Positions 2,775-42,798 of a DNA stretch of 64,000 nt are shown here, piece after piece (positions within the stretch are counted from its first letter, which is position 1; every line of letters begins with the position of its first letter). The notes beneath the pieces are model-generated. The model had not been told where the DNA came from and made no database searches. It saw nothing but the letters and a program-made list of their open reading frames with translations. Location: NCBI RefSeq assembly GCF_019931275.1, contig NZ_JAIOTY010000001.1, forward strand, positions 1,460,650-1,524,649. The letters run 5' to 3'. A program made the translations under genes and the position numbers. Origin of the DNA: Nitratidesulfovibrio sp. SRB-5 (GTDB lineage: Bacteria; Desulfobacterota; Desulfovibrionia; Desulfovibrionales; Desulfovibrionaceae).

Positions 2775-4310
2775 TCAGTCCTCGCAGCCGCAGATATGAT
2801 CGTCGTCGTCCGGGACACCTTCGTGCGGCCCGGCTTCCAGGTGCCCTTCGGGCAGGCCTTCGTGGGCGTCGTCAGGCTCGGTGTCCTCCACGCCGGAAAG
2901 GTCTTCCGCCGTCACGGAGCTGTCGGCATCAGGGGTGTCCCTGTCGGGGCTGGCCTCCGGCGCGTCGCGCAGCAGGTCGGCCAGCGGGGTGGGGTGCCAT
3001 TGGCCGGGCAGGGGGACGCCCCGTTCCTCCAGGTCCGCCCGGTCGCCCAGGTACGGGTTGAAGTAGCCGAAGCCCAGCCACGGGCATTCCCGGCGCAGCC
3101 GCTTGCGGAAGTTGACCAGGCCCATGTTGGGGCCGAATTCGATGCCCAGCAGCAGTTCCAGGTACATTTCGGGGTCGATGTTCAGGTTGCGCAACTGGAT
3201 GAAGCTGACCCCGCAGGTGCGGACCATGTCCAGCAGGGCTTCCAGTTCCGGCTCGGTGTCGGTGATGCCGGGGAAATACAGCAGGTTCAGCGAGACGAAC
3301 ACCCCGTTGCGCCGCGCGGTGGCGATGCTTTCGCGCACATCGGCCAGGGTGTAGCCGTGCGGGCGGTAGTAGCGGTTGTACGGTTCTTCGCGGGCGCTGT
3401 TCAGGCTGACCCGCAGCGAGGTAAGGCCCACCCCGGCAATGCGCTCCACGGCGCCCGGCAGCGAGGCGTTGGAATTCAGGTTCACCGTGCCGCGTCCGCC
3501 CTCGGCGCGGAACAGGCGCACCGCTTCCTCTATCAGGGGGGCCTCGGTCAGCGGTTCGCCCTCGCAGCCCTGGCCGAAGGAAAAGACCGGTTCCGCCACC
3601 TCGTTGCGGGCATGGTGGCGCATCACTTCCACGATTTCCGCCGCCGTGGGGGTGAAGGCCATGCGGTTCTGCGGGGTGGCGCAAATGCGCGACCCCGCCT
3701 CCTGTTGCGAGATGCAGCCCACGCAACGGGCATTGCACGCGCGAGAAACGGGCAGCGGCGCCTCGTACCGGCCAAGGCACAGGTTGCGCGCGGCGGGGCA
3801 GGAATAGGTAAGGGCGCACTTGGCGGTCAGGTGCTGCATCAGCCGGTTGTCCGGGTAGCGGCGCATCAGTTCGCGGGCGGTCTGTTCCACCTTCCTGCGG
3901 TGGACGCCCCGGAACACCTGGCGATTGGATTCGTCCACCCGCTTGGCGCAAACGTAGAAGCGCCCGTTGGCAAAGCCCACGGCCCCGTATGCGAACAGGG
4001 GCAGGGTGGGGGCGTCCGCTTCGCTGACGTAGGCGGGGTGCGCGGTCAAGGTGTGCGCGGGCGCGGCAAATGCGGCCACGGCCAGTTCGTCCATGCCCAC
4101 GGCCTCGCCGGTTTCCGGGTCCAGCCCCACGGCGCGGCGGCCCGGCAGCAGGAATAGCTCGCTCTCGTCGGGCAGGGGCATCAGTTCGTCGGGACGGGGC
4201 AGGGCGAATTCGTGCCCGCGCCGACAGACCATCAGCAGGTCCGGATGGTCGTAGATTTCGCCGTTTTCGTCGGCCACGACAAGATGGGGACGGATATTGG
4301 ATGAGGCCAT
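2775..4310 (-). CDS. radical SAM protein of unknown substrate with Cys-containing tail
   Basis: The 511-residue protein has a central radical-SAM domain with the cluster motif CNARCVGC (Cys192, Cys196, Cys199), a glycine-rich SAM-binding segment (SFGQGCEGEPL near residue 245) and the strand LTSLRVSLNSA further on. The N-terminal ~160 residues match nothing I can name. Additional cysteines just before the radical-SAM motif (KCALTYSCPAARNLC, about residues 164-178) could bind a second cluster. The C terminus is acidic and ends in HICGCED. The ATG is preceded by AAAGGG. It is a monocistronic unit between convergent purM and the divergent coiled-coil pair. Radical-SAM chemistry is near certain; the reaction is unknown. 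Confidence 0.85.
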   Translation of the reverse strand: MASSNIRPHLVVADENGEIYDHPDLLMVCRRGHEFALPRPDELMPLPDESELFLLPGRRAVGLDPETGEAVGMDELAVAAFAAPAHTLTAHPAYVSEADAPTLPLFAYGAVGFANGRFYVCAKRVDESNRQVFRGVHRRKVEQTARELMRRYPDNRLMQHLTAKCALTYSCPAARNLCLGRYEAPLPVSRACNARCVGCISQQEAGSRICATPQNRMAFTPTAAEIVEVMRHHARNEVAEPVFSFGQGCEGEPLTEAPLIEEAVRLFRAEGGRGTVNLNSNASLPGAVERIAGVGLTSLRVSLNSAREEPYNRYYRPHGYTLADVRESIATARRNGVFVSLNLLYFPGITDTEPELEALLDMVRTCGVSFIQLRNLNIDPEMYLELLLGIEFGPNMGLVNFRKRLRRECPWLGFGYFNPYLGDRADLEERGVPLPGQWHPTPLADLLRDAPEASPDRDTPDADSSVTAEDLSGVEDTEPDDAHEGLPEGHLEAGPHEGVPDDDDHICGCED

Positions 4311-36148: not shown

Positions 36149-36798
36149 GGCAAAAAATGAACAACGCAACCACAATTGTTCAATGCGCTGGCCCACAAAA
36201 AGAACTTGGAACTGTTCTGGATGAACCGGAAAATCTGGGTGGTTTCCGGCAGGGTGGGGGAGTAATCCGCCGCCATTGCGAATATCTCGCGCACGCGCAG
36301 GTACATCCGGCGTTCGCTGGCCCGAATGTCGCGGATGCGATCAAGCAACTCGTCAAAGCGGTCCGGCACGGCTGATCCGGCAACGGGCGGGTTCTTCAAC
36401 CGTTCGTCGTCCAGAGTGAAGCCCTTGACCAGATACTCCCGCAGCCGCTCCGTGGCCCAGTGGCGGAACTGGGTGCCGCGGGGCGAACGGACGCGCTAGC
36501 CCACGGCCAGTATGGCGTCGAGACTGTAGAACTTTACGCTGCGCCGAACCTGCCGCGCCCCCTCGGCCCGAACCTGTAAGTAACTCTTACAGGTTGCCTC
36601 GGGGGTAATTTCGCCCTCTGCGTACAGGGCCTTCAGGTGCAGGGTGATGTTTTGCGACGAGGTCTGGAACAACTCGGCCATCATTGCCTGGGAAAGCCAA
36701 AGCGTATCCTCGGCAAACCGGCAGTCCACACGGGTATGACCATCCTCGGCTTCGTAGAGCAAGAATTCACCCGGCAGTGGCGATTGAAGGTCGGTCAT
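36127..36798 (-). pseudogene. RhuM-family protein, interrupted by an amber stop and truncated
   Basis: The start (ATG 36798, after AGGAGGAGGG) encodes a normal RhuM N terminus: MTDLQSPLPGEFLLYEAEDG, then LWLSQAMMAELFQTSSQNI and VRRSVKFYSLDAILAVG. TAG at 36496-36498 then replaces the tyrosine expected in GYRVRSP. In the same frame coding continues as RVRSPRGTQFRHWATERLREY, then LVKGFTLDDERLKNPP and RFDELLDRIRDIRASERR to about FRFIQN. After this, sequence is lost at the AT-rich island border and the frame ends with unrelated residues at 36127. Full-length family members are about 330 residues. RhuM proteins are accessory genes often near phage or restriction loci; their role is poorly known. 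Confidence 0.85.
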
Positions 36799-36913
36799 CC
36801 CTCCTCCTGTCGGCATCTTGCAAGGATGGCGGCTTGCGTCCGGTGGGGCTGTGGGGCATGGCCCGCGCCCCGGTCAGCTGTTCTCCGGGGCGTCAGGCCT
36901 GGCGATGCATGCG

Positions 36914-38958: not shown

Positions 38959-39131
38959 GGAATGCTCCGGTGAGTGTGTCGCGCCGTTGTACAGGGCGCG
39001 GGGGCAAAGGGAAAGCGTTGGGCGGGGGCTGGAACACGGCAGAGCCGGGCGGCAGGGGGGGCGCGGCAGGTGCGAGCGGCAGAGGCTTGGTAGTGAGCGG
39101 GGACGCTGCTGTCGGAATCCGCGCGCTGCGG

Positions 39132-39177
39132 TCGCCATCCGTAATGATCGTGCTGCGCACTCTCATAACGGCTGCCG
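39132..39177. repeat. 46-bp palindromic element, copy 1
   Basis: Flanks TCGCCATCCGT and ACGGCTGCCG enclose nested arms CCGT / ATGA / GTGC, loop TGC, GCAC / TCAT / ACGG, with symmetrical A-A and TC-TC internal loops. It is 39/46 identical to copy 2, and all six stem differences are paired compensatory changes. Confidence 0.85.
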
Positions 39178-39244
39178 CCTTTTTCCGCCGGGCTGCGTTG
39201 ACTGTCTTTTTTTGATGCTCACGTACATAAGTACAGCGCTGCTT

Positions 39245-39290
39245 TCGCCATCCGTAAGGTTCGCGCTACGCGCTCACCTAACGGCTGCCG
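39245..39290. repeat. 46-bp palindromic element, copy 2
   Basis: Same layout and orientation as copy 1, 113 bp away: CCGT / AGGT / GCGC, loop TAC, GCGC / ACCT / ACGG. Conserved outer flanks and preserved pairing suggest a structured DNA or RNA element, for example of REP type. Confidence 0.85.
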
Positions 39291-39455
39291 ATCTCCGCTC
39301 AAAAAAAGCCATCCGCCTTGCCCGGCGAAAAAACTCGTAATTCCTTGCATCGTCCCCGCACAGCCATCCGCGCCGGAAGACCTGCGCGGAGTATAAGGAA
39401 GCAAGGCTAAAAAAAGGAAGAGCAGCCTTGGACAGCGCCTCCTGCGGATACGAAA

Positions 39456-39487
39456 GCGCCGGGACATCCATGCGGATGCCCCGGCGC
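39456..39487 (-). terminator. terminator hairpin of the M16 peptidase gene
   Basis: A 14-bp stem with one mismatch (GCGCCGGGACATCC against GGATGCCCCGGCGC), loop ATGC, about 70 bp past the stop. On the minus strand only TTTCG follows, so termination may be partial. Confidence 0.6.
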
Positions 39488-39555: not shown

Positions 39556-42369
39556 CTAGGGCAGCACGCGGACCGTGTACGCCCCCTCCACCTTCAGATA
39601 CTTGCGGGCCAGCGCGCGCAGTGCCTCGGCGTCCAGCTTGGCCGCCTTGTCCACCACCTGCTTGTTGAAGGCCAGCGGGTACCCCTGCGATGTCAGCACC
39701 GCCGCCTCGGAGCTGCGGCTGCCAAGGCGCTGGTGTTCGCGGTAGTAGTCGCCTTCCAGCTGGTTCTTGCCGCGCCGCAGTTCGTCGTCGGGCAGGCGGT
39801 CGGCGTGCAGGCGGGCGATGACGTCCTTGAAGCCCTGCGTGGCCTGTTCCAGCTTGCCCGGCTCGGTGCCGATGTAGAAGATCATGAACCCGGCCTTTTC
39901 CGACTGCCAGTTCATGGCGGTGACGGTGTAGCCAAGGCCCTGCTCGTCGCGCAGGTCGCGGAACAGCAGGCCGCTCTGGCCGGACAGGATGGCCTGCATC
40001 AGCTCAAGGCCGGGGGTGTCGTCGCTTTTCAGCGGCGCGGTGGGGAATACCAGCATCAGGTGGGCCTGGTTGCGGCCCGGCAGGTGCAGGTCCAGCCCCT
40101 TGTCCTTGTTCCAGTCGGGCGCGGACAGGCTGGCGGGCTTGGCGTCGGGCGCGGGCAGTTCCTTGGCGTGGCGGATGACCGCCTCGCGGTCGTACTGGCC
40201 GCACACGGCCATCACCCACGGCTGGCGAACCTGCTGCGCCCAGAAGCCGCGCACGTCGGCCACGCCGAACTGCTGCACCGCCTCGGGCATGCCCAGATGA
40301 TAGTAACCGTACGTGTGCCCGGGGAACAGGAAGGGCGTCAGATGGCGGAAGGCCAGACCCATGGGCTGGTCCTCGCGCGCCTTGATGGCGGCCACCTGGT
40401 TCACCCGTTCGCGCGCCACTTCCGCGTCGGCAAAGGCGGGCGCGGTCAGCACTTGGCCCAGCAGGGCGAACATGTCGTCATTGAAGCGCGAAGGCTGTCG
40501 TAGCGCCAGGCTGAAGGTCTGCCGCCCGGCGGATGCGCCCAGGCTGGCGGCGCGGTCGGACTGGTAGGCTTCCATGGACGGGGCGTCCAGCCCGTCCGCG
40601 ATGCCGGCGGCTTTCGCCCCGGCGGCCTGCGGCGTGGGCAGGGTGCCCTTTACCAGCGCGCTGGCGACCAGCGATGCCAAGCCCTGCTTGCTTTCGGGCA
40701 GCAGCGCGTTGCCGCCGCTGAACACCATGTCCACCGCCGTGTAGGGCAGGGTGGCGTCCGGCATGAGGATGAGCGTGCGGCCCTTGCCAAGGTCGATGAC
40801 CTCGGTCTTGTCGGCCACGGCGGCGGATGCGGCGTCGGACCCGGCGCGGGCCGGGGCGGGCCAGGTCTTGGCCAGCGTGGCGGCAAGGTCGGGCGTCTGC
40901 GATTTTTCCGGCGTCAGGGCCACCACGGAAAGCCGTTCGGGCCGCAGCCAGCGGCTGATCAGGTCTTGCAGGGTGGCGGGGGTGACGTCGTGCAGGCCGC
41001 GCAGGTAGTTGGTTTCACCCTGCAGGCCGGTGAAGAACTGGAAATAGCCAAGCTTGGAGGCAAGGCCGGGCAGGGTTTCCTTGGCCCGGAACATGTCGTC
41101 CTCGAGGTTCAGCTTGGCGCGCTCGATGTCCTCTGCCGTGAAGCGGCTGGCGGACAGCGAAGCCAGGTCCGCCGTCAGGGCGGTCCAGAAGGCGTCCAGC
41201 TTGTCGGCGTCCAGTTCTGCCGTCAGGTACAGCATGCCCACGCGCTCGAAGCTGTAGTTGGACAGGGAGATGGAATCCACCAGCTGCTTCTCGTACTTGT
41301 AGGTGCGGTACAGCAGCGAGGTGCGGTCGCCGCCCAGCAGGTGGGCCAGCACGTCGAGCTGGGGCGACTGCACGTCGCCGAAGCCGGGCGCCGGGAAGGA
41401 AATGCCCAGGTACACCTTGTTCCACGGGCCGGGTTCGATCTTGACCGTAGGCACCGGCGACGCAGGCGCGGGGGCCGCGCCAGTGGCGGGCTTGGCGGCC
41501 TTTTCCGTTTTGGCGGGCTTGGCGGCCTTGTCGGATTTGGCCGATGCGGGGGCGGCAGCCTTGCCACCGTCGGCCTTTCCGCCGTCGATGAGGGTCAGCG
41601 GCTGGGCCAGCAGTTTTTCCGCGTCGATGGGCGCGGGCGGGGTGACCGAGGCGTCGTTCTTCAGGTCGCCGAACAGGCGCTGCGCCTCGGCCAGCGCCTC
41701 CGCCGGGTTCACGTTGCCCACCACGGCCAGCAGCATGGACTGCGGCTGGTAGTGCCTGCGGATGTAGTCGCGGATGTCATCCGCCGTGAACGACTTGATG
41801 GTCTCGCGCAGGCCGATGATGGGCGATGCGTAGGGCGTGCCGTTCAGGGTCAGGGCCTGCATGTGCTGGAACAGCCGGTTGTCGGGGCTGTCCTCGCCGC
41901 GTTGCAGTTCGGCCAGGATGACGTCCTTTTCGGATTCAAGCTCGGCGGGGTCCAGCGTGGGGTGGAAGGCCATGTCCTTCAGCACCTCCATGCCCAGCTT
42001 CCATTGCGCGGCGGGCATGTCGGTAAGGTACACGGTATAGTCGAAGCTGGTGGCGGCGTTCAGGTAGCCGCCCGCGCGCTCCACGTCGCGGGCCACGGCG
42101 CCCTTGGGGCGGTTTTCCGTGCCCTTGAAAACCATGTGCTCCAGCACGTGGCTTATGCCTGCCTCGCGCGGGGTTTCGTAGGTGGAGCCGGCGTGCACGT
42201 ACAGGCGCAGCGAGGCCAGCGGAAAACGCTCGTCCGGCTGGATGAGCACCGTCAGGCCGTTGGAAAGGCGGGTCAGCTGCGGGGCCGGGGCTGCGGGAGT
42301 GGCGGCCGTTGCTGCGGTCGGCATCGTCAGGGCTCCGAGGAGAAGAAACAGGGTGAGAATGGTGCGCAT
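39556..42369 (-). CDS. exported M16 zinc metallopeptidase, two-module (insulinase/pitrilysin family)
   Basis: The 937-residue product has a signal peptide (MRTILTLFLLLGALTMPTAA). The N-terminal catalytic module has the inverted zinc motif HVLEH (74-78) and the third ligand about 76 residues later in EKDVILAELQRGED (Glu154). A Lys/Ala/Pro-rich insert (about residues 270-310) precedes the second half of the module. The C-terminal M16 module (about 470-937) lacks HxxEH, as usual for the non-catalytic half, and includes RDLRDEQGLGYTVTAMNW. These enzymes degrade peptides in the periplasm. ATG 42369 follows CGGAGACATTCGCA. Divergent from the Hpt-STAS gene. Confidence 0.93.
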   Translation of the reverse strand: MRTILTLFLLLGALTMPTAATAATPAAPAPQLTRLSNGLTVLIQPDERFPLASLRLYVHAGSTYETPREAGISHVLEHMVFKGTENRPKGAVARDVERAGGYLNAATSFDYTVYLTDMPAAQWKLGMEVLKDMAFHPTLDPAELESEKDVILAELQRGEDSPDNRLFQHMQALTLNGTPYASPIIGLRETIKSFTADDIRDYIRRHYQPQSMLLAVVGNVNPAEALAEAQRLFGDLKNDASVTPPAPIDAEKLLAQPLTLIDGGKADGGKAAAPASAKSDKAAKPAKTEKAAKPATGAAPAPASPVPTVKIEPGPWNKVYLGISFPAPGFGDVQSPQLDVLAHLLGGDRTSLLYRTYKYEKQLVDSISLSNYSFERVGMLYLTAELDADKLDAFWTALTADLASLSASRFTAEDIERAKLNLEDDMFRAKETLPGLASKLGYFQFFTGLQGETNYLRGLHDVTPATLQDLISRWLRPERLSVVALTPEKSQTPDLAATLAKTWPAPARAGSDAASAAVADKTEVIDLGKGRTLILMPDATLPYTAVDMVFSGGNALLPESKQGLASLVASALVKGTLPTPQAAGAKAAGIADGLDAPSMEAYQSDRAASLGASAGRQTFSLALRQPSRFNDDMFALLGQVLTAPAFADAEVARERVNQVAAIKAREDQPMGLAFRHLTPFLFPGHTYGYYHLGMPEAVQQFGVADVRGFWAQQVRQPWVMAVCGQYDREAVIRHAKELPAPDAKPASLSAPDWNKDKGLDLHLPGRNQAHLMLVFPTAPLKSDDTPGLELMQAILSGQSGLLFRDLRDEQGLGYTVTAMNWQSEKAGFMIFYIGTEPGKLEQATQGFKDVIARLHADRLPDDELRRGKNQLEGDYYREHQRLGSRSSEAAVLTSQGYPLAFNKQVVDKAAKLDAEALRALARKYLKVEGAYTVRVLP

Positions 42370-42798
42370 TGCGAATGTCTCCGATGCGCCGCGCGGGGCG
42401 GCGTGCGCTGTGTCGTACCGGCGGCCGGTGATGGCCGGAAAACGTGCGGCGCGGCCCTTGCAGGGCAGGGCATGGCCGCGGGCCGGGGGCGTCGGTCTGC
42501 CGACGCCGCGAACAAGGCCGCGTGCGCGGGCCTTGCATGGCGGGGCCGACAGGTACATGTAATCGTTTCCCGGCGCAAGGCAAGGTGGCGGCGGAAGACA
42601 AAACGGCGCTTTGTTGCTACTTTCCGCGGGGGAAAGCCGCGCGAAAGGGCGCTTGCGGGCGGCATGTCCGCACGCCGCAGCCCTGCGGAAAAAGCATCGG
42701 CGCGGCCTGCCCGATGCTGCCCCGCCCGGCGCAATCTGGACCGACGTTCCGCATAATCATGTTTCCGGTACGCTGGCAGGCGTACAGACCACAAGGCA
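42370..42798. other. divergent promoter region between the M16 and Hpt-STAS genes
   Basis: 429 bp, GC-rich. A perfect 8-bp hairpin (GGCGTCGG, TCTG, CCGACGCC) lies at 42488-42507. No gene or clear promoter elements are visible. Confidence 0.5.

What the first reader, a model, noticed from the sequence alone, without database searches (positions are those of the whole stretch)
39132..39290. Two directly repeated 46-bp palindromes with compensatory base changes
The copies at 39132-39177 and 39245-39290 share 39 of 46 bases. All six differences in the stems form three compensatory pairs (T-A to G-C, A-T to T-A, T-A to C-G); the seventh is in the loop. Both keep symmetrical A-A and TC-TC internal loops and identical outer flanks. 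Such covariation means structure is or was under selection. It could be a REP/BIME-like element, an RNA, or a protein-binding hairpin, and I know no named family that fits.
Basis: seen in the sequence. Interest (0 to 1): 0.72.

Follow-up and report, generated by a model that had tools for sequence, protein, structure and literature searches.

The report
Mobile nested hairpins without known transposase
The two palindromes belong to a large family of tiny hairpin-forming DNA elements that appear to have spread through Nitratidesulfovibrio genomes, sometimes landing at the tip of other hairpins, although no intact copy of the enzyme usually held to move such elements was found there.

Summary
The copies belong to a REP-like family: at least 129 covariance-model hits in this 4.12-Mb genome, at least 149 in a one-contig relative, hits in all 8 genus genomes and 62 of 149 family genomes; in a phylum draw 7 of 297 genomes hit, all in the own family. 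The unit is about 55 bp: mini-hairpin, GTC, a 38-44-nt hairpin with conserved mismatches, G. Orthologous loci differ by precise presence or absence of one unit, in some cases at the tip of a terminator hairpin. The window pair decorates a 310-bp composite that is itself a long imperfect palindrome. At fixed sites stems change one-sidedly (10 to 1 compensatory, 28 ortholog pairs), while paralogs covary, so pairing was selected in mobile lineages rather than here. It fails the REP tag test (GTAG at the foot in 0 of 240) and no intact REP transposase was found in the genus; unit orientation is mixed. Best reading: a new RAYT-less variant of REP/BIME elements, probably moved as single-stranded DNA by an unidentified enzyme.

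The parts
39122..39130 (+). 5' mini-hairpin (CGC-GCT-GCG) of copy 1
   Evidence: Column pair 1-9 of alignment A1 is CG 31, AU 4, GU 1, other 4 of 40; pairs 2-8 and 3-7 never vary
39134..39176 (+). Main hairpin of copy 1, preceded by GTC and followed by G
   Evidence: CM hit G000:C1:1499771-1499831, 81.9 bits
39235..39243 (+). 5' mini-hairpin (AGC-GCT-GCT) of copy 2; its outer pair differs compensatorily from copy 1
   Evidence: Alignment A1
39247..39289 (+). Main hairpin of copy 2
   Evidence: CM hit G000:C1:1499884-1499944, 82.3 bits
39223..39234 (+). Small palindrome GTAC-ATAA-GTAC, directly followed by copy 2; related composites without this hairpin read GTACG (L033, L111) or GTACA (L188) here
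39094..39109 (+). Left outer arm of the composite palindrome
   Evidence: Inverted pair I2, 88% complementary; DNA fold
39347..39362 (+). Right outer arm of the composite palindrome
   Evidence: Inverted pair I2; DNA fold
39206..39215 (+). Inner arm CTTTTTTTGA, faces 39299-39308
   Evidence: DNA fold; alignment of 17 composites
39299..39308 (+). Inner arm TCAAAAAAAG
39097..39407 (+). Composite element E1 (about 310 bp): a long imperfect palindrome decorated by copies 1 and 2, with a 3' hairpin (about 39368-39389) and a conserved tail
   Evidence: Multi-copy match, query 598-908; alignment in which similarity ends sharply at the tail; fold z -3.84, 1 of 100 shuffles as good

Best explanation
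The two palindromes are copies of a non-autonomous, REP-like mobile hairpin of Desulfovibrionaceae. Shown: the unit is high-copy and mostly intergenic, and is present or absent as one precise unit of about 55 bp at orthologous sites. Shown: its stems covary among paralogs while unpaired signature positions stay fixed. Inferred: it moves as folded single-stranded DNA that an enzyme recognises through the mini-hairpin, GTC and conserved mismatches, and it often inserts near the tip of other hairpins such as terminators; repeated insertion of this kind builds nested composites such as E1 at 39097-39407. Inferred: the enzyme is a Y1/HUH type supplied only transiently to this genus, or one not identified here. 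Resident copies then decay.
For: At least 129 hits in G000 and 149 in G066, each with only the best 150 candidates scored. All 8 genus genomes and 62 of 149 family genomes hit; in a phylum draw 7 of 297, all in the own family. Covariation: 12 pairs with changes on both sides against a shuffled mean of 5.2, score 0.222 against 0.088. Orthologous filled/empty sites: L173/L193 (97% identity, 57-bp difference, no clear target duplication); L020/L117 and L125/L025, in a terminator loop; L050 (G038) filled, six overlapping loci of three genomes (G112, G100, G085) empty; L062 copies 1 and 2 against L071 and L033. The empty point is a palindrome centre (top 5% of local positions) in 7 of 12 hand-picked contexts. 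Flanks are palindromic (11 of 14 or better) in 43 of 240 copies, against 120 of 4780 re-paired controls. TC/TC mismatch in 198 of 240, GC..GC of the mini-hairpin in 228 of 240. PMC8266576 (abstract and Introduction read): conserved stem mismatches are needed for E. coli TnpAREP activity and compensatory repair abolishes it.
Against: No enzyme identified: Y1_Tnp in 2 of 8 genus genomes only, one broken, one cut by a contig end; no RAYT by protein query; no transposase-like gene among recurrent neighbours, judged by eye. Across the family Y1 and the hairpin are not associated (18 shared genomes, p 0.38). A replication-strand bias is weak: p 0.063 with the origin at the contig start, 0.023, 0.067 or 0.098 with the origin from GC skew, singletons 0.32 or more. 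Of the 12 contexts 6 are clear orthologs and only 3 of those pass at 5%; L050 and L090 do not look like palindrome centres at all (0.98, 0.93). Most copies (197 of 240) have no flanking palindrome by my measure. Empty sites alone cannot exclude deletion.
Confidence: 0.7

Rival explanations
1. A REP/BIME family in the ordinary sense, mobilised by a RAYT (TnpAREP) or IS200-type Y1 enzyme that the genus has lost or receives only now and then. (This overlaps with the best explanation and differs on the agent.) I raised it from 0.35 to 0.4 on checking, because unit orientation proved mixed and the G100 Y1 match is cut by a contig end.
For: Size, intergenic mosaic layout and conserved stem mismatches as in group 2 REPs (PMC8266576, Introduction). 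Y1 enzymes have visited the genus: the own fragment matches IS200/IS605 model NF033573 at 40.2 bits, cut-off 55. A RAYT-like protein exists in a sister genus (L248; NF047646 66.9 bits, cut-off 80). In fully searched stretches adjacent units are 7 direct to 6 inverted, often in the order inverted, direct, direct (my count; G066 part repeated).
Against: GTAG at the hairpin foot in 0 of 240. No R1 hairpin in the 3 kb around the sister-genus RAYT, nor in 31 of 32 loci holding Y1 matches (these are the best-matching loci, not all Y1 matches; the exception, L208, is a weak 24-bit match).
Confidence: 0.4
2. A structured RNA or terminator element kept by selection at each site.
For: Family-level covariation; copies mostly between genes and rarely between divergent ones (2 of 20 in G066); the composite folds better than 99 of 100 shuffles.
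Against: Of 28 true orthologous pairs (26 sites) 16 are identical and the rest show 10 one-sided to 1 compensatory stem change, plus one length change. Sites are often empty in relatives. No Rfam match near threshold.
Confidence: 0.08
3. The compensatory changes come from template switching at quasi-palindromes during replication, with no selection on structure.
For: The mechanism is described (PMC8794818, start of abstract seen in the listing only). At own 1720069 / G066 520323 both terminator arms and hairpin stem differ yet stay self-complementary.
Against: It should act in place and repair mismatches, but in-place changes are one-sided and TC/TC stays mismatched in 198 of 240. A/A and T.C also stay, but my search pattern partly required them.
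Confidence: 0.07
4. Empty sites are deletions across an old hairpin, not new insertions.
For: Palindromes are known to promote deletion (recalled). At the window site one relative (L048, G124) keeps a sequence like the E1 left end, so some absence may be loss.
Against: At L050 one genome is filled and three are empty. Some empty points are themselves palindrome centres. Copies sit in many unrelated places.
Confidence: 0.12

Closest known systems
REP sequences with TnpAREP/RAYT (GTAG superfamily, E. coli group 2)
   Same: High-copy, mostly intergenic palindrome of 20-50 nt with conserved stem mismatches and a conserved 5' sequence; mosaic clusters
   Different: No GTAG at the foot; an extra 5' mini-hairpin and GTC; no intact RAYT found in the genus
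CGTC-tagged REPs (PMC3733652)
   Same: No dedicated transposase known; short palindromes with a one-sided tag
   Different: CGTC across the foot in only 8 of 240; longer, mismatched stem. The paper's main text does not mention Desulfovibrio
BIMEs
   Same: Palindromes combined with conserved linkers in mosaic composites; both orientations occur
   Different: Composites are nested palindromes, with units at or near the tip of larger ones; no strict alternation
REPINs (PMC3116915)
   Same: Miniature hairpin DNA thought to be mobile
   Different: There the unit is an inverted doublet and singlets are held to be remnants; here single units are present or absent at orthologous sites

Membership tests
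REP (GTAG superfamily) | Short palindrome at high copy, mostly intergenic | tested here: met
   129 and 149 hits (capped); 0 of 20 copies in 400 kb of G066 and 6 of 65 pattern matches in own loci overlap a called gene (home-made gene caller; some own loci overlap and some matches are false coding ones)
REP (GTAG superfamily) | Conserved tetranucleotide, usually GTAG, 5' of the palindrome | tested here: not met
   GTAG in 0 of 240; the three bases before the hairpin are GTC in 192 of 240
REP (GTAG superfamily) | RAYT/TnpAREP gene in the genome | tested here: not met
   Y1_Tnp in 2 of 8 genus genomes, one broken, one cut by a contig end; none in the one-contig G066; RAYT query best E 0.403
REP (group 2) | Conserved mismatch or bulge in the stem | tested here: met
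   TC/TC in 198 of 240
BIME | Units in alternating orientation | tested here: inconclusive
   Capped lists: 24 direct, 12 inverted neighbours in G000; 30 direct, 10 inverted doublets in G066. Fully searched stretches, where weak units are seen too: 7 direct, 6 inverted (counted)
REPIN | Inverted doublet as the mobile unit | tested here: not met
   Single units present/absent; singletons are 66 of 107 clusters in the capped G066 list and 13 of 22 in fully searched stretches (counted)
CGTC REP | CGTC tag at one end | tested here: not met
   8 of 240
MITE of a DDE element | Target site duplication | tested here: inconclusive
   None clear at L173/L193; elsewhere a few bases are ambiguous
TnpAREP substrate | Cleavage of the folded single-stranded hairpin by the enzyme | not testable with these tools
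   Needs an in vitro assay

The most novel reading that the evidence does not exclude
An undescribed, non-Y1 transposition route moves a single folded DNA hairpin into the tip of other hairpins, so that palindromes are inserted inside palindromes and grow into nested composites; the genus does this without a RAYT. (Lowered from 0.18 to 0.15 on checking, for the reasons given under the first rival.)
Probability: 0.15. Interest if true: 0.75.

Novelty: new variant of a known kind. Interest (0 to 1): 0.45.

Why it matters
How REP-like hairpins spread is unsettled, and published work ties most of them to RAYTs. Here is an abundant family with presence/absence differences between close relatives and no RAYT in a one-contig genome, so the mobilising enzyme is something else or transient. 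The filled/empty pairs make target choice testable. It also shows that covariation among repeated copies need not mean function at the resident site.

Tried and rejected
RAYT flanked by hairpins: 32 loci holding Y1 matches (30 from the family search, L044 and L045) were searched with the CM; one weak match, L208; rejected as a link. Three further stretches around weak Y1 matches (L247-L249): none. A repeated gene near copies: the largest cluster looks like ABC-type ATPases (name recalled from its sequence); no transposase-like family seen by eye in the printed clusters. Autonomous element in sister genera G087/G137: the repeated hairpins lie in composites of about 230 and 600 bp; for the one composite whose ORFs I listed (L302) I saw no transposase-like ORF, by eye. 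Replication-strand bias: not robust. Rfam: best match 20 bits against a gathering score of 35. Viral contigs: 4 stretches with the exact pattern, not followed. Pattern hits in a Sericytochromatia and a Betaproteobacteria MAG may be chance or misbinned contigs; not followed.

Caveats. Hit numbers are floors: at most 150 candidates per genome were scored, 18. That the other genomes are outside the family is read from the listing, which shows 11 own-family genomes first; 270 are not listed. The copy sets come from a pattern that partly requires CCGTAA and TAACGG and hold a few coding false matches; TC/TC, the mini-hairpin and GTC were not in the pattern. Accession prefixes were matched to G handles from contig lengths. 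Outputs were cut. The list typed held 61 of the 62 positive genomes; the missing one, G090, has no listed Y1 match. The 12 contexts were hand-picked from 42 to avoid repeats. One of the 29 strict ortholog pairs is a coding false match without stem changes; 50 looser pairs gave 21 one-sided and 2 compensatory changes.

Full report
Observation. The two copies are exactly as described: 39 of 46 bases shared, six stem differences forming three compensatory pairs, one loop difference. The repeat extends further 5'. The copies lie between a peptidase gene on the minus strand (39556-42558; YfmH, YfmF and PqqF models match below their cut-offs), with a terminator-like hairpin at 39456-39487 on that strand, and a LysE/RhtB-type exporter gene on the minus strand (38308 to about 38958; matches below cut-off).

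Family. A BLAST of 39100-39320 against the own genome gave 46 places. I aligned 40 copies from the fetched stretches, leaving out 3 of 43 pattern matches. A 3-bp mini-hairpin and a 16-pair main hairpin are supported: 91.4% of cells paired, 12 pairs with changes on both sides (shuffles 5.2), covariation 0.222 (shuffles 0.088), slid controls far lower; related copies break independence, as that tool warns. The column pair 14-55 is unpaired in 33 of 40. A covariance model finds at least 129 copies in the own genome and at least 149 in the one-contig relative G066; 20 copies in 400 kb of G066 searched without that cap suggest about 200 per genome (extrapolation). All 8 genus genomes and 62 of 149 family genomes match. 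In a draw over the phylum 7 of 297 genomes match, all in the own family, which also controls for false matches.

Unit and mobility. L173 against L193 (97% identity) differs by a 57-bp unit. L020/L117 and L125/L025 differ by one unit in the loop of a terminator hairpin. At L050 one genome is filled and six overlapping loci of three other genomes are empty. L062 shows copy 1 absent in L071 and copy 2 absent in L033. Of 325 queries 42 had a clean empty counterpart, many redundant. In 12 hand-picked contexts the empty point is a palindrome centre (top 5% of local positions) in 7; 6 of the 12 are clear orthologs and 3 of those pass. Flanks of 240 distinct copies are palindromic at 11 of 14 or better in 43 (17.9%) against 120 of 4780 (2.5%) re-paired controls; in the own genome 10 of 52. 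So insertion into hairpin tips is frequent but far from exclusive.

Composite. The window pair sits in E1 (39097-39407), found as a unit elsewhere in the genus. It folds as one long imperfect palindrome decorated by the two hairpins (z -3.84, 1 of 100 shuffles as good; outer arms). At the window site E1 is present in G000 and G066 and absent in G124, G112, G038, G100 and G085, though G124 keeps a sequence like its left end; no flank match was listed for G136. A second kind of composite holds an inverted and one or two direct hairpins 70-80 bp apart. Composites of that kind are present in one and absent in the other of G000 and G066 at several sites of collinear stretches. In fully searched stretches adjacent units are 7 direct to 6 inverted (counted); the capped genome lists lean to direct (24:12:10).

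What the covariation means. Within-genome paralog pairs show 1948 compensated double changes to 1337 one-sided; nearest paralogs 125 to 165; the 28 true orthologous pairs (26 sites) 1 to 10, 16 being identical. Fisher p is 0.029 against nearest and 0.0009 against all paralogs, but pairs are not independent. So pairing was maintained in the mobile lineages, and resident copies drift. The window hairpins fit: copy 1 is identical in G066, copy 2 has one uncompensated change there. Template switching would act in place and repair mismatches; TC/TC remains in 198 of 240 copies.

Enzyme. The own genome's only Y1_Tnp match is a broken IS200-type fragment. In the genus Y1_Tnp is found in 2 of 8 genomes, the other match being cut by a contig end; G066 has none. 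A RAYT protein from a sister genus finds nothing convincing in the genus (best E 0.403). Across 149 genomes Y1 and the hairpin are not associated (18 shared, p 0.38). No transposase-like gene recurs next to copies, judged by eye.

Literature. Searches joining Desulfovibrio with REP, RAYT, palindromic-repeat or REPIN terms listed no description of this family; I judged by titles, abstract starts and term counts, one search listed 12 of 131 papers and 20 of 37, and most subscription papers are not held. PMC8266576: outline with abstract, and Introduction. PMC3733652: passages and the first of two parts of the Discussion. PMC3116915: passages. PMC2817692: one passage. PMC6006769: three terms searched, no occurrence. 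PMC8794818 and PMC1525189: search listing only.

Verdict. A new variant of a known kind: a REP/BIME-like family without the GTAG tag and without an intact RAYT in the genus, present and absent as single units, often nested in other palindromes.

Noticed in passing
L044:4749-5006 (G000:C1:239748-240005): Broken IS200/IS605-type transposase fragment, the only Y1 match in the own genome.
   Followed up: partly
G066:C1 near 2.70 Mb: GC skew of sampled stretches puts the origin near 2.70 Mb, where one of two DnaA-domain genes lies, not at the contig start, which carries the other.
   Followed up: no
L242 about 3550-4040: A minisatellite with repeated CGTCC/CGTT-type units in the own genome, absent at the aligned place in G066.
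   Followed up: no
L241:1069-1129 and L260:11323-11379: Orthologous positions whose terminator arms differ strongly between species yet stay self-complementary.
   Followed up: partly
L302:1830-2416 and similar stretches in L301, L303, L304: A repeat of about 600 bp in a sister genus that folds strongly (z -4.93) and carries a related hairpin.
   Followed up: partly
L196-L199: Four IMG/VR contigs contain the exact hairpin pattern; they may be prophage or host contigs.
   Followed up: no
window 36496-36816: A 106-aa ORF that looks like a truncated RhuM-type protein (name recalled, not searched).
   Followed up: no
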